A stretch of DNA of 64,000 bases from Gemmobacter aquaticus (lineage in GTDB: Bacteria; Pseudomonadota; Alphaproteobacteria; Rhodobacterales; Rhodobacteraceae), in contig NZ_VOAK01000021.1 of assembly GCF_007859075.1 (NCBI RefSeq), positions 1 through 64,000 on the forward strand, read 5' to 3'. Shown here one piece after another: positions 20,957 to 32,073 of this stretch. A model generated the notes under the pieces. That model was not told where the DNA came from. It saw only the letters and a program-made list of their open reading frames with translations, and searched no databases. How positions within the stretch are numbered: position 1 is the stretch's first letter; each line of letters opens with the position of its first letter. The position numbers and the translations under genes were made by a program.

Positions 20957-22426
20957 TTACAACCCGTAAAGCGCTGCGAACTTCTCGTCGAGGTAATCCA
21001 GAAGCGGCGCCTCGGTCGGTTCAAAGCCGCAGGCCTGTGCAATCACGGCACGCGGCTCATAAAGCCCGCCGTGTCGCTGCACCTTCTCGCGCAACCAGCC
21101 GGTCGCGGCCGAGGTGTCGCCGCGCGCCAGTTGCGCATCCAGCTCCGGCACCTGCGCGCGCAGGGCCTGATGCAAGCACCCCGCATAGACATTGCCCAGC
21201 GTGTAGGTCGGGAAATAGCCAAACAGCCCGCAAGACCAATGCACATCCTGCAAAAGCCCGTTGGCGGGGCTGTCCACGGCCACGCCGAAATCGGCGTGGA
21301 ACCGATCGTTCCACGCGGCCTCCAGATCGGCGACCGCCAGATCGCCCCGGATCAACGCCCGCTCCAGATCGAAGCGCATCATGATGTGCAGGTTATAATG
21401 CACCTCATCCGCCTCGGTCCGGATGAAGCCGGGCTGCACCCGGTTCACGATACGCGCAAACTCGTCCGGCCCGGTCACGCCGAAATCGCCGAACCGGTCA
21501 AGCATCTGGCGATACATCCAGCCGGTAAAGGCCGGGCTGCGACCAAGCTGGTTCTCGTAGATCCTGCTCTGGCTCTCGTGAACGCCCATGGACACGCCCT
21601 GCCCCACGGGCGTTAGCAGATAGTCCTGATCGATGCCCAGCTCATAGCAGGCATGCCCCACCTCATGGATGGTGGAATAGAAGCAGTTGAAGGGATCGGT
21701 TTCGACCACCCGCGTGGTGATCCGCACATCATTGCCCGATCCCGAACTGAACGGATGCACGGCCAGATCCAGTCGTCCGCGCGTGAAGTCATAGCCAAAG
21801 GCTGTCGCCAGATCGCGGGCAAAGCGCAACTGCGCCGGTTCGCCGAAGTGATGCGCCAATCGCGACGGGGCCGCCGCCGCCAGCACCGCCTCGCGCAGGC
21901 GTACCAGTCGTGGGCGCATCCGGTCGAACATGGCGCCGATGGTTTCCGCTGTGGCGCCGGGTTCGTAATCGTCCATCAGCGAATCGTAAAGGTCACCGCC
22001 CTGCGCCAGCGCTGCGGCCTCCTCCCGCTTCAGGGCGATCACCTCGGCCAGTGTGGGCAGGAAATCGGCAACCTTTTCAGCCGCCCGCGCCTCGGCCCAG
22101 ACGCCCTGGGCGGTCGAGGTCAGCCGCGCCAGCGCCTGTGCCAGCGAGGCCGGAACCTTGGTCGCACGCGCATGCGCCCGACGGATCAGCCGAAGCTGTG
22201 CCGCCGCAGCCTCATCGGCAGGTTCTGCCGCCGCAAGCCAGTCGGCGATTCGCGGATCGGTGCGGCGGGCATGCAGCACGCCTTCGATCGCGGCCATTTC
22301 CTCGCCACGCTGCTCGGCCGCGCCGCGGGGCATCACGGTCTCCTGATCCCAGCCCAGCCGGCCCGAGATCTGTGCCAGCGCCTCGGTCTCGCGCTGGAAG
22401 GCCATCAACTCATCATAGGCACTCAT
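20957..22426 (-). CDS. Thermostable carboxypeptidase 1-type metallopeptidase (M32)
   Basis: A 489-residue cytoplasmic metallocarboxypeptidase, the normal size for family M32. The zinc motif HEVGH is followed by the downstream glutamate region (GVHESQSRIYENQLGR), both family signatures; GNVYAGCLHQAL lies near the C terminus. The ATG at 22426 overlaps the ctaA stop by one base, fixing the start and indicating co-transcription with ctaA. The enzyme removes most C-terminal residues from peptides. Confidence 0.93.
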   Translation of the reverse strand: MSAYDELMAFQRETEALAQISGRLGWDQETVMPRGAAEQRGEEMAAIEGVLHARRTDPRIADWLAAAEPADEAAAAQLRLIRRAHARATKVPASLAQALARLTSTAQGVWAEARAAEKVADFLPTLAEVIALKREEAAALAQGGDLYDSLMDDYEPGATAETIGAMFDRMRPRLVRLREAVLAAAAPSRLAHHFGEPAQLRFARDLATAFGYDFTRGRLDLAVHPFSSGSGNDVRITTRVVETDPFNCFYSTIHEVGHACYELGIDQDYLLTPVGQGVSMGVHESQSRIYENQLGRSPAFTGWMYRQMLDRFGDFGVTGPDEFARIVNRVQPGFIRTEADEVHYNLHIMMRFDLERALIRGDLAVADLEAAWNDRFHADFGVAVDSPANGLLQDVHWSCGLFGYFPTYTLGNVYAGCLHQALRAQVPELDAQLARGDTSAATGWLREKVQRHGGLYEPRAVIAQACGFEPTEAPLLDYLDEKFAALYGL

Positions 22427-23592
22427 CAGAGGGTTCCTTCGCGAATGGAGCCTGCAACCGGATACTGGCTCAGATACCGGGCGCGCAGGATCAGCACCCA
22501 CAAGAGAATCGCGCCGATCTGATGGGTGATCGCCACATGCAGATGTGCCGCCGTCAGCGCCGTGGCGATGCCCAGCACCACCTGTGCCAGCAGCATGATC
22601 ATCACGGCGTGAAAGGCCATCCGGGTTGACCCATGCACCGATTTGCGCCCGCGATTCCAGACCACGACGCCAAAGATCAAAAGCAGATAGCCCACCATCC
22701 GGTGCATGAACTGCACAAGGCCGGGGTTCTCAAAGAAGGCATGCCACAGGGGCAGGCTACCGCCCTGCCCGTCCGGTACATAGAAGGCATCCGCCGGGAA
22801 GAACTGCCCGTTCATGTCGGGCCATGTCGGAAAGCCGCGCCCGGCATCGATCCCTGCGACCAGCGCCCCCAAAAGGATCTGCAGGAAGGCAAGGTGCAAA
22901 AGGCCCGTCGAAAGACCGAAAAGCCGCCCTTCGCGCGACCTGCGCGCCTGCAGCAACTCTCCCTCACTGCGGCCCAGCAGCAGCACATACCAGCCCGTTA
23001 GCCCAAGGATCACGAAGGCAAGCCCAAGGTGCAGCGCCAGCCGGTAAGAGGCCACGTCGACCATCGTCCCTTTCAGTCCTGATGACACCATCCACCAGCC
23101 GATTGCGCCCTGAACCCCGCCCAGCGCGCCCAGTCCCAGCAATCGTCCGGTCCAGCCGGTCGGTATCTTTCGGGCAGCCAGAAAGCCCAGGAAGCCCGCG
23201 GCCCAGACCAGCCCGATCACGCGGCCAAGTTGCCGGTGCCCCCATTCCCACCAGAAGATCGACTTGAAGGCCTCAAGCGTCATGCCGGCGTTCTGGATCT
23301 GGTATTCCGGGCTCGCCTGATACTTCGCGAACTCCTCAGCCCAGTCGGCATCGTTCATCGGGGGCAGCGCGCCGTGAATGGGCTTCCATTCGGTGATTGA
23401 AAGGCCACTATCGGTCAGTCGCGTCAGGCCACCGACAACGATCATCGCCGACACCAGAAGGAAGATCAGCATCAACCACAGCCGTATCCCCTGCCGCGCG
23501 CCGCCATGGCCACGATCGACCAACCCCGGCTGCGGGGCGGGCGTCCGCGCCTGATCGCCGACGTCCTCAAAGATGCTGCGTTTTTGCGCCAT
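22426..23592 (-). CDS. ctaA: Haem A synthase (COX15/CtaA)
   Basis: A 388-residue inner-membrane enzyme that oxidises the C8 methyl of haem O to the formyl of haem A for aa3-type cytochrome oxidase. Eight transmembrane helices are visible. Conserved haem histidines lie in WEWGHRQLGRVIG, LHLGLAF, FMHRMVGYLLL and THQIGA. The longer loop after the first helix is typical of the alphaproteobacterial and mitochondrial type. The presence of ctaA implies an aa3 oxidase encoded elsewhere. Confidence 0.95.
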   Translation of the reverse strand: MAQKRSIFEDVGDQARTPAPQPGLVDRGHGGARQGIRLWLMLIFLLVSAMIVVGGLTRLTDSGLSITEWKPIHGALPPMNDADWAEEFAKYQASPEYQIQNAGMTLEAFKSIFWWEWGHRQLGRVIGLVWAAGFLGFLAARKIPTGWTGRLLGLGALGGVQGAIGWWMVSSGLKGTMVDVASYRLALHLGLAFVILGLTGWYVLLLGRSEGELLQARRSREGRLFGLSTGLLHLAFLQILLGALVAGIDAGRGFPTWPDMNGQFFPADAFYVPDGQGGSLPLWHAFFENPGLVQFMHRMVGYLLLIFGVVVWNRGRKSVHGSTRMAFHAVMIMLLAQVVLGIATALTAAHLHVAITHQIGAILLWVLILRARYLSQYPVAGSIREGTL

Positions 23593-25219: not shown

Positions 25220-25247
25220 TCTGCACAAATTTCACGCAAGTGACGTA

Positions 25248-25275
25248 GCGCCGCCCAATCGGGTGGCGCTTTTTC
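25248..25275 (+). terminator. Rho-independent terminator after the ThiE-like gene
   Basis: AGCGCCGCCC (25248-25257) pairs with GGGTGGCGCT (25262-25271), with one G-U pair and an AATC loop, followed by four further T. It ends the ThiE-like transcript and separates it from the ATP-grasp cluster. Confidence 0.9.
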
Positions 25276-25373: not shown

Positions 25374-28300
25374 ATGGCGATCCTGGCCAGCATTCATCAC
25401 CTGACACATTACCGCTATGATCGCCCGGTGACGCTTGGCCCGCAGATCATCCGCCTGCGCCCCGCGCCGCAGTCACGCACCAAGGTGATCTCGCACAGCC
25501 TCAAGGTCTCGCCCGGCGGCCATTTCGTGAACCACCAGCAGGACCCATATGGCAACTGGCTGGCGCGCTTTGTCTTCCCCGAACCGGTGACCGAATTCCG
25601 GATCGAGGTCGATCTGGTCGCCGACATGACGGTGTACAACCCGTTCGACTTTTTCGTCGAGGACAGCGCGGAATACTGGCCCTTTGAATATCCAAGAGAT
25701 CTGGCTGACGATCTGGTGATCTACCGAACGCCAGAGGAAACCGGGCCGTTTCTGGCCCAGTTCCTGTCCACCTTGCCGCGCGACAAGACACGCACCATCG
25801 ACTTCCTTGTGGCGCTGAATGCCCGCGTCAACGGCATGGTCAATTACACGATCCGGATGGAGCCGGGCGTGCAGACACCCGAGCAGACGCTGGACATAAA
25901 GTCAGGATCGTGCCGCGATTCCAGCTGGCTTCTGGTGCAGGTCCTGCGGCATCTGGGCTTCGCGGCACGTTTCGTCTCGGGCTACCTGATCCAGCTGACG
26001 CCCGATGTGAAATCGCTCGATGGTCCCTCCGGGACCGATCGCGACTTTACTGACCTGCATGCATGGGTCGAGGTCTATCTTCCCGGTGCGGGATGGATCG
26101 GGCTTGATCCGACGAGCGGCCTTTTGACGGGTGAAAGTCATATCCCGCTGGCCGCAACCCCGCACTACCGCAATGCGGCACCGATCTCGGGCGGGTTCGC
26201 GGCGGCGGGCACGCCGAAGGTCGATTTCGAGTTCGACATGCAGGTGCGCCGCGTGGCTGAACATCCGCGCATCACCAAGCCGTTCAGCGATGCCGCATGG
26301 GAGAATCTGAATGCCCTTGGCCGAAAGGTCGATGAGGTTCTGGCCGAGGGCGATATCCGGCTGACGATGGGGGGCGAGCCCACCTTCGTCTCGATCGACG
26401 ATTTCGAATCCGCCGAATGGAATACCGCCGCCGTCGGCCCCATGAAGCGCGACCGGGCCGACGAGCTGATCCGCCGCCTGCGGAACCGTTTCGCCCCCGG
26501 TGGGTTCCTGCACTATGGGCAGGGCAAATGGTATCCGGGCGAGACACTGCCGCGCTGGACCTTCTCGCTCTACTGGCGGCGCGATGGTCTGCCGGTCTGG
26601 CAGAACGCTGACCTCGTCGCACGCGAGGCGCAGGATTACAGCGTGGGCGCGGCCGAGGCCGGACGGTTCATGGAAAGCTTTGCCGAAAAGCTGGGAATCG
26701 CCCCCGAACATGCGCAGCCAGCATTTGAAGATCCCGCCGAGTGGATCCTGAAAGAGGCCAACCTGCCGCCGAATGTCTCGCCCGAGAACTCGCGCCTGAA
26801 AGATGCTGAAGAACGCTCCCGGTTTGCCCGTGTCTTCTCGCGCGGGCTGACAGAACCCTCTGGCTTCGTCCTGCCGATCCAGCGCTGGCAATCGAAGGCG
26901 AGCGGGCCGCGCTGGCGGTCCGAGATATGGAAGCCGCGCCGCGGGCATCTCTTCCTTGTGCCGGGCGACAGCCCGGTGGGCTTCCGCCTGCCCTTGGCGG
27001 CGCTGCCGTGGATACCGCCGGCCCAGTACCCCTATACCTATCCGGCCGACACCTCGATCCCGCTGGCCCCGCTGCCAAACTTCCACTCTCGCGTCGCCCC
27101 GCACCGTCTGGCCGAGGTGCAGGCAGAGTTCGACCGGCTGGCGCAGGAAGCCGCCGAAATCGCCGAGATGACCCCCAAGACCTCGGGCGATCACGTGCAG
27201 TCTGGCAAGACCCGCGCCGATGTGCCGGGACGCCAGAGGCAGGTCGCACAAGGCGGCGTGGACCCCGCGAATGGCACCGTGCGCACCGCCATCGCGATGG
27301 AGCCCCGCGACGGGCGGCTTTGCCTGTTCATGCCGCCCTGCGAGACGCTGGAGGATTACCTTGAACTGTTGGCCACGGCCGAGGCGACAGCCGCAGACCT
27401 TGGCCTGCCCATCCATATCGAGGGCTATGCCCCGCCGCATGATCCCCGCCTGAACGTGATCCGTGTCGCCCCGGACCCCGGCGTGATCGAGGTGAACATT
27501 CATCCGGCCCATAGCTGGGAAGATTGCGTCGCAACCACCGAGGCAATCTACGAGGAAGCGCGGCTCTGCCGTCTGGGTGCCGACAAGTTCATGATTGACG
27601 GGCGCCACACCGGCACCGGCGGCGGCAACCACGTTGTGGTGGGTGGCGCCACAATGGACGACAGCCCTTTCTTGCGCCGGCCGGACCTGCTGAAATCGCT
27701 GATCCTGATCTGGCAGCGCCATCCCTCGCTTTCCTATCTGTTCTCGGGCCTGTTCATCGGGCCGACCTCTCAGGCGCCGCGGATCGACGAGGCGCGCCAC
27801 GACAGCCTTTACGAGTTGGAGATTGCGCTGAGCCAGATCGGAGACCCTGTCTCGGGCGGGCCTCTGCCGCCGCCGTGGCTGGTGGACAGGCTGCTCAGGA
27901 ACATCCTGATCGATGTGACGGGCAACACCCACCGTGCCGAAATCTGCATCGACAAGCTCTATTCCCCCGACGGGCCGACGGGCCGGTTGGGGCTGGTCGA
28001 GTTCCGCGGCTTCGAGATGCCGCCGCACCCGCGCATGAACCTTGCCCAGCAATTGCTGATCCGGGCCATCATCGCGCGGTGCTGGAAGTCACCCGTCAAG
28101 GGCAAGCCCGTAAGGTGGGGCACCGTGCTGCATGACCGTTTCATGCTGCCCCATTTCATCTGGTCCGACTTCCTGTCGCTGCTCGATGACCTTGCCCTGC
28201 ACGGCTTCAAGCTCGATCCCGTCTGGTACGAGGCGCAGGCCGAGTTCCGCTTTCCGTTCTGCGGGCAGGTTACGGTCGAGGGTGTCCATCTGGAACTGCG

Positions 28301-28799
28301 GCAGGCGCTGGAGCCCTGGCACGTTCTGGGCGAGACCGGCGCCATTGGCGGCACGGTGCGCTATACCGACAGCTCGGTCGAGCGCCTTCAGGTCAGGATG
28401 ACGTCGCTTTCGCAGGATCGCTACCGCATCATGTGCAATCGTCGACCGGTGCCGATGGCGCGCACCGAAACCAGCGGTGAAAGCGTGGGCGGCGTGCGTT
28501 TCAAGGCCTGGCAACCTGCGGCCGCGCTGCATCCGGTCTTGCCGGTCAATGCGCCACTGACCTTCGACATCTATGACGACTGGACCGGTCGCGCCATTGG
28601 CGGATGCGTCTATCACGTCGCCCATCCGGGCGGGCGGAACTATGATACCTTCCCCATCAACGGCAACGAGGCCGAGGCGCGGCGTCTTGCCCGGTTTGAA
28701 GCGCATGGCCATGCCCCCGGTGCCTATGTACCGGCGACCGAAGTTCCGAACGCGGAATTTCCGCTGACACTCGACCTGAGGCGCGGGGCATGGATATAA
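25374..28799 (+). CDS. Transglutaminase-like protein fused to DUF2126
   Basis: A 1141-residue two-part protein. Residues 1-290 are a transglutaminase-like (papain-fold) domain with Cys180 (SGSCRDSSW), His229 (DLHAWVEV) and Asp245 (IGLDPTSG), so the catalytic triad looks intact. Residues about 300-1140 are DUF2126, with [31 protein letters not shown] and [20 protein letters not shown]2126 has been related to circularly permuted amidoligase-type enzymes in comparative genomics. It is first of three genes that together resemble a peptide-ligation/cleavage system of unknown substrate. Cytoplasmic; no signal peptide. Confidence 0.88.
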
Positions 28800-28806
28800 C
28801 GGTGCG

Positions 28807-31167
28807 ATGAACCGCACCGTAGCCAGCCCCGTCCCGCCTGCGATCCTCGCCGGTTACGCCCCCCAACCCGGCGTGGCGGATGAGCTTTTTGACGCGAACG
28901 GCGCCATGCGCCCGGTCTGGGCACCATTCATCGCGCAGTTGGCGGGGCTTTCGCCAGAAGACATCGCCGCCCGCTTTGCGCGAGGCGAGCAATACCTGCG
29001 GGACGCGGGCGTCTATTTCCGGCTCTACTCCGGGGGGCCAGCGCAGGAGCGCGAATGGCCGCTCAGCCATGTGCCGGTCCTGATCGCGGATGCGGAATGG
29101 GACGCGATCTGCGCGGGCCTGACGCAGCGGGCCGAGCTTCTGGAGCGGGTCATGGCCGACCTCTACGGCCCCGGCCATCTGGTGCGCGACGGGCACCTGC
29201 CAGCCGAACTTGTGGCGCAAAACCCGCAATGGCTTCGCCCTCTGGTGGGGGTCGTGCCGCGATCGGGCCACTGGCTGCACCATCTGGCCTTCGAGATCGG
29301 GCGATCACCGGACGGGTCATTCTTCGTTCTGGGTGACCGGGCGCAGGCCCCGTCGGGGTCGGGCTTCGCGCTGGAAAACCGCATGGCCACGACGCGCATC
29401 TTCTCGGACCCGTTTCCCCGCGCCAATGTCCGGCGGCTGGCAGGCTTCTTCCGCGCCTTCCGCGAGGCGATGGAGGATCAGGCCGGGCCGGGGCGGCGCA
29501 TGGCGATCCTGACGCCGGGGCCGAACAACGACACCTACTATGAGCACACCTACATTGCCCGCTACCTCGGCTTGACGCTGCTGGAAGGTGAGGACCTGAT
29601 CCTGCGCGACGGGCAGGCCATGGTGCGCACCGTTCGCGGCCTTGAACCGCTCGGCCTGTTGTGGCGGCGCATCGACAGCGACTTTGCCGACCCGCTGGAG
29701 CTGAACGAGAATTCACATATCGGCACCCCCGGTCTTCTGGAGGCCCTGCGGCAAGGCACGTTGGGCCTTGTGAACGCGCTTGGTTCGGGTGTGGTCGAGA
29801 CACGGGCCATGCTGGCCTTCCTGCCGCGCATCTGTGAATCCCTTCTGGGCGAAACCTTGCAACTGCCTAATATTGCCACCTGGTGGTGCGGCCAGCCGAC
29901 CGAGCGTGCTTTTGTTCAGGCCAATGCCGAACGGATGCTGATCAGCCCGGCGATGGACCACGCCCTGCCCTTCTCGGTCGGTGCCGGCACCGCGCTTGGG
30001 ACACTGCCCGACCGGCTGGCCCGCGATGGCGCCCGGCTGGTGGGGCAAGAGGCCGTGACTCTCTCGACCACACCGGCATGGAGCGAAGGGCGACTGGTGC
30101 CGCGCCCGATGACGATCCGGGTCTTCGCCGCCCGCACGCGCGATGGCTGGACTTTCATGCCCGGCGGCTATGCCCGTATCGGCAAATCCGACGATGCCAT
30201 GGCGCTTGCGATGCAGGCCGGTGGTTCGGTTGCCGATGTCTGGGTCGTGGCGCCGCGTCCGGTCGCACCCGACAGTCTGGTAACACCCGGCACGTTTGAA
30301 CGCAGCCCTCCGGGCATCCTGCCCTCGCGCGCTGCCGACAACCTCTACTGGCTTGGCCGCTATGTCGAACGCACAGAGGGCGCGATCCGCATGTTGCGCG
30401 CATGGCACCTGCGCCTGGCCGAGACCGGAGACGCCGACGAGCCGCACATGGCCCATCTGGCAACGCACCTTGCCAGCCTCGATCTGACCCCGGACCTGCC
30501 GATCCCGCCAGCGCTCGCCGGCATGATCGGCGCGGCGAGGTTTGCAGCCTCCAAGGTCCGCGACCGCTTTTCACCGGATGGCTGGGGCGCGCTGAACGAT
30601 CTGGCGCGCACCGCCGAGAAACTGGCGGCCAAGGTGACGCATGGTGACGACGCGGCGCAGGCGCTGTCGATCCTGTTGCGCAAGATCTCGGGCTTTTCGG
30701 GGCTGGTACATGAAAACATGTATCACTTCGCCGGTTGGCGGTTTCTGTCTCTTGGCCGGGCACAGGAACGCGCCGACAACATGCTGATGCTGCTTGAGAC
30801 CTTTGCCGATCCCGAAGCGGCAGCCGGGGCGCTGCAGATCGCGATCGAGGTCGGCGACAGCGTGATGACGCACCAGCGCCGCTACCGTTTCGGCCCCTCG
30901 CGCGATACGACGATGGACCTGCTGCTGCTCGATGCGCACAATCCGCGCGCGGTGCTTTATCAGATCGACCAGATGCGCCACCACGTCTCGCGCCTGCCGC
31001 CGACTGAGCCGGGCGGGCGGATGTCGGCGCTGGAGCGCGCCCTTCTGACGCTCGACACCGACCTGCGGGTCGCGGCACCGGCCGATATGGACAGCGTGGC
31101 GCTTGCCGGGCTGCGCAACCGTCTGGCAGGGGTGTCTGACCTCTTGTCCGCAAGCTATCTGAGGTGA
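28807..31167 (+). CDS. Circularly permuted type-2 ATP-grasp domain fused to alpha-E domain
   Basis: A 786-residue fusion of two proteins (COG2308 and COG2307) that are usually separate genes. Residues about 60-480 are the circularly permuted ATP-grasp, with YGPGHLVRDGHLPAEL, RMAILTPGPNNDTYYEH and WWCGQPTERAFV. Residues about 490-786 are the helical alpha-E domain, starting PSRAADNLYWLGRYVERTEG. ATP-grasp enzymes of this class are predicted to form amide bonds. The gene starts 7 nt after the DUF2126 gene and is followed after 4 nt by a second transglutaminase. Substrate unknown. Confidence 0.9.
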   Translation: MNRTVASPVPPAILAGYAPQPGVADELFDANGAMRPVWAPFIAQLAGLSPEDIAARFARGEQYLRDAGVYFRLYSGGPAQEREWPLSHVPVLIADAEWDAICAGLTQRAELLERVMADLYGPGHLVRDGHLPAELVAQNPQWLRPLVGVVPRSGHWLHHLAFEIGRSPDGSFFVLGDRAQAPSGSGFALENRMATTRIFSDPFPRANVRRLAGFFRAFREAMEDQAGPGRRMAILTPGPNNDTYYEHTYIARYLGLTLLEGEDLILRDGQAMVRTVRGLEPLGLLWRRIDSDFADPLELNENSHIGTPGLLEALRQGTLGLVNALGSGVVETRAMLAFLPRICESLLGETLQLPNIATWWCGQPTERAFVQANAERMLISPAMDHALPFSVGAGTALGTLPDRLARDGARLVGQEAVTLSTTPAWSEGRLVPRPMTIRVFAARTRDGWTFMPGGYARIGKSDDAMALAMQAGGSVADVWVVAPRPVAPDSLVTPGTFERSPPGILPSRAADNLYWLGRYVERTEGAIRMLRAWHLRLAETGDADEPHMAHLATHLASLDLTPDLPIPPALAGMIGAARFAASKVRDRFSPDGWGALNDLARTAEKLAAKVTHGDDAAQALSILLRKISGFSGLVHENMYHFAGWRFLSLGRAQERADNMLMLLETFADPEAAAGALQIAIEVGDSVMTHQRRYRFGPSRDTTMDLLLLDAHNPRAVLYQIDQMRHHVSRLPPTEPGGRMSALERALLTLDTDLRVAAPADMDSVALAGLRNRLAGVSDLLSASYLR

Positions 31168-31171
31168 CCCG

Positions 31172-32047
31172 ATGCGCTACGACATCCGCCTCAGCATTGA
31201 ATACACCTATCAGGCCGCCTCGGACCATGTGCGCAACATCCTGCGCCTGCAGCCGGTCTCAGGGCCGCGCCAGCGCGTGACAGCCAGCCTTCTGACGATC
31301 GAACCGCTTCCGGATGAACGACGTGACGGGGTCGATTTCTTTGGAAATCCAACGACGTCTGTCGCCTGGCATCGCCCGATTGACCAGATCACCTTTCAGC
31401 TGCGCGCCTCGGCCGAGCGTCTGGCGCAGGGCGAAGAGGTGGACCTTTCACCTGCCCTGTCGGATCTTGTTGACGATCTGGCATTGCAGACCGACCTGTG
31501 GCCTGGCTCGCCGCAGCATTTTCTGGGCGCCTCGCCCCGCATCGGCCATGACGCGGCCATCACCGCATTCACGCAAGCCGCCATCGCCGGTGCCGCAACC
31601 ACACGCGGCGCGGTCGAGGCGCTTGGCCGGGCGATCCACGCGGAGATGACCTATGACGCCGATGCCACGGATGTGATGACCCCGCCCGAGGTCGCCTTTG
31701 CTGAACGTCACGGCGTGTGTCAGGACTTCGCGCAGATCATGATCGGCGGCCTGCGCGCGCTTGGTATTCCGGCAAGTTACGTCTCGGGATTCCTGCGGAC
31801 ACTTCCGCCGCCCGGCCAGCCCCGGCTTGAAGGTGTGGACGCGATGCATGCCTGGGTGGGCGCCTGGTGCGGCGCGGCACATGGCTGGGTTGAATACGAC
31901 CCGACCAACGCCCAATGGGCGGGCGAGGATTACATCACGGTTGCCGTGGGGCGCGACTATTCCGATGCGGCGCCGGTGCGTGGTGCCATCCGCACCGCCG
32001 GCGGTCAGGACAGCAGCCAGGCGGTGGACGTGATCCCGCTGGATTGA
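31172..32047 (+). CDS. Transglutaminase-like (papain-fold) protein
   Basis: A 291-residue protein with an N-terminal beta-sandwich domain common to bacterial transglutaminase-like proteins (about 1-80) and a C-terminal catalytic domain. Cys183 (ERHGVCQDFAQ), His226 (DAMHAWVG) and Asp243 (WVEYDPTNA) form the triad. It starts 4 nt after the ATP-grasp/alpha-E gene and ends the operon at a strong hairpin. Together with the first gene, this locus has two papain-fold peptidases flanking a ligase, suggesting cleavage or transfer of the peptide the ligase makes. Confidence 0.9.
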   Translation: MRYDIRLSIEYTYQAASDHVRNILRLQPVSGPRQRVTASLLTIEPLPDERRDGVDFFGNPTTSVAWHRPIDQITFQLRASAERLAQGEEVDLSPALSDLVDDLALQTDLWPGSPQHFLGASPRIGHDAAITAFTQAAIAGAATTRGAVEALGRAIHAEMTYDADATDVMTPPEVAFAERHGVCQDFAQIMIGGLRALGIPASYVSGFLRTLPPPGQPRLEGVDAMHAWVGAWCGAAHGWVEYDPTNAQWAGEDYITVAVGRDYSDAAPVRGAIRTAGGQDSSQAVDVIPLD

Positions 32048-32073
32048 GAAAGGGGGCCCGAAGGCCCCCTTTC
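32048..32073. terminator. Bidirectional terminator between the transglutaminase and clpB genes
   Basis: A perfect 11-bp stem: GAAAGGGGGCC (32048-32058) with GGCCCCCTTTC (32063-32073) and a CGAA tetraloop. It begins right after the transglutaminase stop, and clpB ends 7 nt beyond, so it serves both convergent operons. Confidence 0.85.

What the first reader, a model, noticed from the sequence alone, without database searches (positions are those of the whole stretch)
25374..32047. Compact ATP-grasp / alpha-E / double transglutaminase locus with ligase and alpha-E fused and no Anbu gene
Three adjacent genes (gaps of 7 and 4 nt) encode a transglutaminase-DUF2126 fusion, a circularly permuted ATP-grasp fused to an alpha-E domain, and a second transglutaminase with intact triad (Cys183, His226, Asp243). 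The first triad (Cys180, His229, Asp245) also looks intact. Seen directly: domain order, triads, operon and terminator. Known: these families co-occur in bacteria and are predicted to synthesise and process an unknown peptide tag, often with the proteasome-like Anbu protease. Here Anbu is absent from the 3' side, where clpB lies instead, and two normally separate proteins are fused. Inference: a self-contained peptide ligation and cleavage system whose substrate is unknown. This is my best candidate for an undescribed system in the window.
Basis: partly seen in the sequence, partly recalled or inferred. Interest (0 to 1): 0.75.

Follow-up and report, generated by a model that had tools for sequence, protein, structure and literature searches.

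The report
Peptide-ligase operon with degenerate ATP-grasp
This three-gene bacterial operon is one copy of a widespread peptide- or amide-joining system of unknown substrate whose protease partner sits elsewhere in the same genome, and its ATP-grasp protein belongs to a conserved family that has lost the residues thought necessary to use ATP.

Summary
The three genes, domains, tight spacing and both Cys-His-Asp triads are confirmed. The headline reading is not. The genome has a canonical Anbu operon on another contig (stand-alone ATP-grasp, alpha-E, transglutaminase, Anbu). The fusion is the usual form of this paralogue: 42 of 53 titled loci, in Alphaproteobacteria, Bacteroidota, Nitrospirota and Verrucomicrobiota, carry all three genes in the same order. 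The system was already predicted in print (Iyer 2009, as cited in papers seen here). What I did not find in print is that the fused ATP-grasp lost its catalytic set. All 44 stand-alone relatives aligned keep the ExN motif, the lysine and the glycine loop; of 73 fused ones 0 keep the Asn, 1 the Glu, 5 the Lys and none the loop. The fused clade is distinct (100/100). All 24 class genomes at least 90% complete that carry the fusion also carry a stand-alone ATP-grasp and alpha-E. DUF2126 models as a glutamine-synthetase fold and is the likely ligase here. Best reading: a pseudo-ligase scaffold operon working with the canonical operon, probably in nitrogen stress.

The parts
25374..28799 (+). gene 1: transglutaminase-DUF2126 protein (P0001, 1141 aa)
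25785..26111 (+). Transglut_core domain of gene 1; C180, H229, D245 in 40 of 40 aligned sequences (window included)
26217..28781 (+). DUF2126 domain, glutamine-synthetase-like fold (model mean pLDDT 69.3; best VIA Z 12.8)
28807..31167 (+). gene 2: CP-ATP-grasp fused to alpha-E (P0002, 786 aa)
29074..30180 (+). CP_ATPgrasp_2 domain, predicted to be catalytically dead
29332..29340 (+). degenerate metal site: G176-D177-R178 in place of the canonical E-D-N
29944..29988 (+). degenerate nucleotide-loop region (canonical K....SGGYG lost; alignment loose here)
30208..30234 (+). degenerate C-terminal motif (canonical NSSQGGG.K reads AMQAGGSVA)
30319..31161 (+). alpha-E domain, both ER motifs present (E521-R522, E654-R655)
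31172..32047 (+). gene 3: transglutaminase-like protein (P0003); C183, H226, D243 in 51 of 51 aligned sequences (window included)
25247..25270 (+). terminator-like stem upstream of the operon, after the thiE-like gene
32048..32073 (.). 11-bp perfect hairpin between convergent gene 3 and clpB, read by eye

Best explanation
The operon is the second, Anbu-less locus of a two-locus peptide/amide ligation system. Shown here: a transglutaminase joined to a DUF2126 domain modelled as a glutamine-synthetase fold, a fused ATP-grasp/alpha-E protein and a second transglutaminase form a conserved unit. The fused ATP-grasp lacks the residues that are invariant in its stand-alone relatives at the metal and nucleotide site. 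An intact ATP-grasp/alpha-E/transglutaminase/Anbu operon is present elsewhere in the genome. Inferred: DUF2126 is the ATP-using amidoligase of this locus. The fused protein is a pseudo-ligase that keeps a substrate-side pocket and the alpha-E surface and acts as a scaffold or allosteric partner for DUF2126 and/or the active paralogue. The Cys-His-Asp transglutaminase domains transfer or cleave the resulting amide bond. Inferred from expression data of relatives: the system serves nitrogen limitation, for example by handling amine- or peptide-bound nitrogen. The substrate is unknown.
For: Domains and triads. Unit: all three genes in one order and strand in 42 of 53 loci. Pseudo-ligase: 44 canonical against 73 fused sequences; eight hand-picked catalytic positions are kept in 7% of fused cells on average, 101 other canonical-invariant positions in 59%. 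R177 and E234 are kept in 73 of 73, R430 in 72 of 73. Ala substitutions of E163/N165 (and R139/D141) in the ATP-grasp ligase Cp1B abolished or significantly attenuated activity (PMC12568646 section 8). A canonical relative, the ATP-grasp of the Yersinia Anbu operon, released phosphate from ATP (PMC6376114 section 8). Fold: VIA Z 43 to 3n6x, about 20-24 to glutathione and glutathionylspermidine synthetases, 21.2 to Cp1B. Separate clade: 39 fused against 44 canonical, 100/100. Dependence: 24 of 24 genomes at least 90% complete with the fusion have a stand-alone ATP-grasp and alpha-E (by hand); 84 of 84 DUF2126 genomes in a 299-genome phylum sample have alpha-E, against 72 of 215 others. Linkage: a divergent Anbu operon beside the unit in L056; ATP-grasp/alpha-E genes beside it in L078, L079, L086 and in G035, G042, G169, G124. 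Anbu lies within 4 kb of DUF2126 in G025, G091 and G160, three genomes without the fusion. Nitrogen: a Burkholderia cluster of ATP-grasp, alpha-E, transglutaminase and a 'large' transglutaminase protein falls by log2 6.0-9.4 in an ntrC mutant; P. putida Anbu-operon genes rise on nitrate or nutrient limitation.
Against: No activity, substrate or interaction of the window's proteins is known. Published co-expression and pull-down found no specific complexes among Yersinia Anbu-operon proteins, and the Anbu proteins tested there showed no peptidase activity. The ExN equivalence rests on motif, fold and a non-significant profile match (hhalign E 0.088, probability 0.65%). 31 of 109 canonical-invariant positions are kept in under 15% of fused sequences, many with no known catalytic role, so divergence is not confined to the active site. 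K467 is kept in 26 and G375 in 24 of 73; L086 keeps Glu and Lys. No sigma-54 motif, and NtrC-like motifs in only 2 of 39 relatives (about the chance rate), none at the window operon or the own Anbu operon. The Burkholderia 'large' protein is only probably a DUF2126 protein. Co-occurrence counts are not corrected for phylogeny. DUF2126 has no Foldseek match at E 0.001 or better (best 0.022), and its active site was not mapped. 5 of the 27 genomes with the fusion (8 of 31 by the looser count) have no DUF2126, so the fused protein does not strictly need it.
Confidence: 0.6

Rival explanations
1. The fused ATP-grasp is still an enzyme that uses a remodelled site (the Asn is replaced by a conserved Arg) for a different chemistry, such as a nucleotide-independent acyl transfer or another nucleotidyl reaction.
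For: The replacement is specific: Arg in 67 of 73; R177, E234, R275, R276, D283, R430 and R448 are kept in at least 71 of 73. The fold is kept (VIA Z 43 to 3n6x) and the clade is distinct.
Against: Lysine, glycine loop, Glu, Asn and most of the NSSQGGG.K motif go together, as expected for loss of nucleotide binding. The residue at the Glu position varies (G, A, S, H), and the fused-only conserved positions found do not look like a new catalytic set.
Confidence: 0.2
2. A self-contained ligation and cleavage system that works without the canonical operon.
For: Intact triads; DUF2126 models as a ligase-type fold; 9 of 27 class genomes with the fusion, six of them at least 90% complete, show no Anbu match.
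Against: The ATP-grasp site is lost. A stand-alone ATP-grasp/alpha-E pair is present in 24 of 24 genomes at least 90% complete, and this genome has a full Anbu operon.
Confidence: 0.12
3. The two operons serve separate pathways and co-occur only through shared ancestry or lifestyle; the fused protein is a structural relic under weak selection.
For: The loci are mostly unlinked (no fused gene within 8 kb of an Anbu match in the class sample), and counts are not phylogenetically corrected.
Against: 46 of 109 canonical-invariant positions are kept in over 85% of the fused sequences. Gene order is kept across four phyla by record title. The two sets of genes are adjacent in L056, L078, L079 and L086.
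Confidence: 0.1

Closest known systems
Predicted Anbu / ATP-grasp / alpha-E / transglutaminase peptide-tagging system (Iyer et al. 2009, cited in PMC5666114 and PMC6376114)
   Same: Same domain families; the genome's other locus has the canonical four-gene order. From memory, the 2009 paper also names a glutamine-synthetase-like ligase that would be DUF2126; the paper is not held.
   Different: The window locus lacks Anbu, carries DUF2126 joined to a transglutaminase, and its ATP-grasp is fused to alpha-E and lacks the catalytic residues.
3n6x, Methylobacillus flagellatus CP_ATPgrasp_2 protein (solved structure)
   Same: Only solved sequence relative of gene 2 found: E 1.1e-63; VIA Z 43, 432 residues aligned.
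   Different: 3n6x groups with the canonical clade, has the catalytic residues, and the chain has no alpha-E domain.
Glutathione synthetase, glutathionylspermidine synthetase (YgiC, YjfC, GspS) and Cp1B ATP-grasp ligases
   Same: Same fold as the ATP-grasp domain (VIA Z about 20-24); canonical family members share an ExN motif with them.
   Different: No significant sequence match; the fused clade lacks ExN, the lysine and the glycine loop.
Glutamine synthetase superfamily
   Same: Fold of the DUF2126 model: VIA Z up to 12.8 over 264 residues, rmsd 4.0, GmaS among the rows; YbdK and Dop appear only in the weak Foldseek list.
   Different: No sequence match to solved structures; DUF2126 is about 850 aa and joined to a transglutaminase.

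Membership tests
Anbu-associated predicted peptide-ligation system | circularly permuted ATP-grasp domain | tested here: met
   CP_ATPgrasp_2 417.6 bits
Anbu-associated predicted peptide-ligation system | alpha-E domain with ER motifs | tested here: met
   194.2 bits; both ER motifs present in the window protein
Anbu-associated predicted peptide-ligation system | transglutaminase-like protein with intact triad | tested here: met
Anbu-associated predicted peptide-ligation system | Anbu gene in the same operon | tested here: not met
   absent beside the window operon; present in a separate operon on contig C12
Catalytic ATP-grasp ligase | ExN metal-binding motif | tested here: not met
   window G176-D-R178; 1 of 73 fused keep the Glu, 0 of 73 the Asn, against 44 of 44 canonical
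Catalytic ATP-grasp ligase | nucleotide lysine and glycine-rich loop | tested here: not met
   window lacks both; Lys in 5 of 73, intact GGYG at the site in 0 of 73 fused, against 44 of 44 canonical
Catalytic ATP-grasp ligase | ATP-dependent amide formation | not testable with these tools
   needs purified protein
Glutamine-synthetase-fold amidoligase (DUF2126) | glutamine synthetase fold | tested here: met
   VIA Z 12.8; the 50 entries shown are all glutamine synthetases or close homologues; Foldseek alone weak; model mean pLDDT 69.3
Glutamine-synthetase-fold amidoligase (DUF2126) | catalytic Glu/His/Arg set equivalent to glutamine synthetase | tested here: inconclusive
   many Glu/His/Arg invariant in 40 of 40; profile alignment to nine GlnA sequences not significant

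The most novel reading that the evidence does not exclude
A bacterial pseudo-ligase class: a paralogue of an active ATP-grasp peptide ligase that lost ATP chemistry once, was fused to alpha-E, and is now an obligate regulator or substrate-presenting subunit for a DUF2126/transglutaminase conjugation machine coupled to the canonical ATP-grasp/alpha-E (and often Anbu) operon, in at least four phyla.
Probability: 0.4. Interest if true: 0.7.

Novelty: new variant of a known kind. Interest (0 to 1): 0.5.

Why it matters
In the papers seen here the Anbu-linked ligation system still has no known substrate. If one of its two ATP-grasp paralogue classes is non-catalytic and comes as a second locus with a glutamine-synthetase-fold domain, that changes which protein should be assayed and suggests that, where both operons exist, they should be expressed and tested together (inference).

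Tried and rejected
Rejected: genome-wide absence of Anbu. Rejected: the fusion as a one-off. A further conserved neighbour was sought by clustering flanking ORFs: the widest cluster, an MnmA-like ORF (named by eye), occurs in 5 loci of two lineages (L081, L082 and three Algoriphagus) several kb away, and an aminotransferase-like ORF (by eye) in 3 loci of two lineages; the other clusters printed are mostly near relatives. I did not count these as partners. No sigma-54 motif and no NtrC-like motif upstream of the window operon by simple patterns. An invariant WWCG cysteine in the 26-sequence alignment A2 was considered as a new active site, but canonical relatives also carry a Cys there. The alpha-E domain gave only middling, helical fold matches (VIA Z up to 9.5); no relationship is claimed. 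DUF2126 by sequence gave no solved relative up to E 10. The P. aeruginosa rlo operon (ATP-grasp, inactive transglutaminase, aspartic protease; PMC12239564, passages) was considered as a parallel and set aside because its ATP-grasp is RimK-like and its other parts differ. Two motif hits in fused sequences were checked and are not at the site. The looser fused set of 31 genomes includes three stand-alone alpha-E genes (G065, G075, G185) and one cut by a contig end (G124), seen; the counts 27 and 24 leave these four out. They were made by hand from the tables, not by a script.

Sampling limits: the 53 loci come from a scan with six peptide patterns of the window protein, so they lean to near relatives; 26 of the 73 fused sequences come from unnamed class genomes instead. 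Fused ORFs under 700 aa and stand-alone ORFs under 400 aa were not aligned, and a duplicate of the window genome's own ATP-grasp was dropped. Anbu was sought with one Anbu protein, so divergent Anbu may be missed.

Literature: DUF2126 occurs in 0 papers of the library; six phrasings for an inactive ATP-grasp in 0; papers for alpha-E/DUF403/COG2307/COG2308 terms (listing seen; passages read in four of them); a pseudoenzyme/amidoligase search gave 63 papers, 12 listed, listing only. Iyer 2009 could not be read, so what it says of DUF2126 and of fusions is recalled. Papers outside the library were not searched.

Full report
What is there. Three genes on the + strand encode a transglutaminase-DUF2126 protein (25374-28799), an ATP-grasp/alpha-E fusion (28807-31167) and a transglutaminase (31172-32047), with gaps of 7 and 4 nt. 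A terminator-like stem precedes the operon and a perfect hairpin, read by eye, follows it before convergent clpB.

Anbu is present. The window's genome (G000, 3.99 Mb, 27 contigs) has two proteasome-family matches. The one on contig C12 is Anbu: it matches five distinct solved sequences, three of them named Anbu, best E 3.4e-78. I took the start that gives Met-Thr at its N-terminus, inside a longer open frame. It follows stand-alone ATP-grasp, alpha-E and transglutaminase genes. The window locus is therefore a second locus of the same domain families.

How common it is. A genome scan with the fused protein gave 53 loci with titles from Rhodobacteraceae, Rhizobiales, sphingomonads, Algoriphagus, Nitrospirae and Verrucomicrobia, many of them metagenome bins. 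In 42 of 53 all three genes stand in the same order and strand; in 46 of 53 the fused ORF is at least 700 aa. Of the other 11, seven are cut by contig ends; L077, L081, L082 and L086 lack an adjacent DUF2126 gene. In L056 (Oceanicola) a whole Anbu operon lies divergently beside the unit; in L078, L079 and L086 an ATP-grasp/alpha-E pair does. Among 190 genomes of the class, DUF2126 occurs in 29, alpha-E in 70, Anbu in 54. Genuine fusions (alpha-E under 240 bits in a frame of 750 aa or more, ATP-grasp in the same frame) occur in 27 genomes, counted by hand. In the phylum sample DUF2126 occurs in 84 of 299 genomes, all 84 with alpha-E, against 72 of 215 without DUF2126.

The ATP-grasp is degenerate. 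I aligned 44 stand-alone sequences (43 and PDB 3n6x) with 73 fused ones (window, 46, 26 from class genomes). At 3n6x positions E161, N163, K368 and G374-G375-Y376-G377, 44 of 44 canonical sequences are unchanged. In the fused set Glu is kept in 1 (L086), Asn in 0 (Arg in 67), Lys in 5 and the intact loop in none; N459 is kept in 0 against 43 of 44 canonical, one being a gap. Single loop or tail residues persist in some (G375 in 24, K467 in 26). The window protein reads LGDR where its own paralogue reads LEDN. By contrast R177 and E234 are kept in 73 of 73, R275, R430 and D283 in 72, R276 and R448 in 71. Of 109 positions invariant in at least 43 of 44 canonical sequences, 46 are kept in over 85% of the fused and 31 in under 15%; the lost ones include seven of the eight catalytic positions but also many without known role. 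In the 31 of 73 fused sequences whose alpha-E start could be cut by a pattern, the first ER motif is kept in 31 of 31; in the second the Glu is kept in 31 and the Arg in 30 of 31. The role of E and N is taken from Cp1B, where alanine substitution of R139, D141, E163 or N165 abolished or significantly attenuated activity (PMC12568646, section 8 read), from a non-significant profile alignment that puts the same motif opposite that of GSP_synth (E 0.088), and from fold matches to glutathione and glutathionylspermidine synthetases. That E and N are the metal ligands in those synthetases is recalled. A canonical relative, the ATP-grasp of the Yersinia Anbu operon, released phosphate from ATP (PMC6376114, section 8 read).

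A separate, dependent clade. In a tree of 39 fused and 44 canonical ATP-grasp domains each group is one side of a branch with 100/100 support. The fused rows were every second one plus a few chosen distant ones; L143 and L145 were left out; some fused rows have long branches, and the program warns of two that meet. Of the 27 class genomes with a genuine fusion, 24 are at least 90% complete and all 24 also have a stand-alone ATP-grasp and alpha-E; the other three are 74-84% complete. Anbu matches occur in 18 of the 27, and in 18 of the 24. Thus in this sample the fused protein goes with the stand-alone ATP-grasp pair more strictly than with Anbu. These counts are not corrected for relatedness.

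DUF2126. A model (mean pLDDT 69.3, 21 sequences) aligns with glutamine synthetases at Z 12.8 over 264 residues, with weak Foldseek scores (best E 0.022). It is the best candidate for the ATP-using ligase of this locus, but its active site was not mapped. Five of the 27 genomes with the fusion have no DUF2126 match.

Physiology. In Burkholderia cenocepacia a cluster of ATP-grasp (DUF404/407), DUF403, a transglutaminase protein and a large transglutaminase protein is among common sigma-54 and NtrC targets, log2 change -6.0 to -9.4 in an ntrC mutant (PMC5491218, passages). In Pseudomonas putida PP_2685 and PP_2688 rise by log2 4.44 and 3.99 on nitrate against ammonium (PMC8050072, passages), and PP2685-2687 show values of 11.1, 6.6 and 7.1 in the first of two nutrient-limitation columns whose heads I did not see (PMC3325844, passage). 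Marine metagenomes link these domains with urea metabolism (PMC3597751, passages). In the window's genome a cluster with two glutamine-synthetase genes, an oxidoreductase, an aminotransferase and ABC transporter parts lies about 9-12 kb from the Anbu operon. Simple patterns gave no NtrC or sigma-54 site upstream of the window operon. A nitrogen role is therefore an inference from relatives.

Verdict. The locus is a common member of a known predicted system. The conserved loss of the ATP site in the fused clade, and its company with the intact paralogue, are points I did not find in print within the library.

Noticed in passing
G000:C12:212700-221600 (L189): A cluster with two glutamine-synthetase-family genes, an FAD oxidoreductase (DAO), a DegT-type aminotransferase and ABC transporter parts lies about 9-12 kb from the canonical Anbu operon; it looks like gamma-glutamyl-amine catabolism (inference).
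   Followed up: partly
L003:3143-4969 (-): An M3-oligopeptidase-like ORF lies just upstream of, and divergent to, the Anbu operon (by eye, not tested by family search).
   Followed up: no
window 20957-22501 (-): Carboxypeptidase Taq (M32) gene near the operon.
   Followed up: no
L077, L081, L082: Sphingomonad/Phenylobacterium-type loci have the fused gene and transglutaminase but no adjacent DUF2126 gene.
   Followed up: partly
L081: A record titled Arthrobacter sp. TPD3018 gives almost the same match as Sphingomonas aquatilis (L082); the title may be wrong.
   Followed up: no
L145 (G069): A very divergent fused-type protein (18% identity) in a 78%-complete genome; may be a further subtype.
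   Followed up: no
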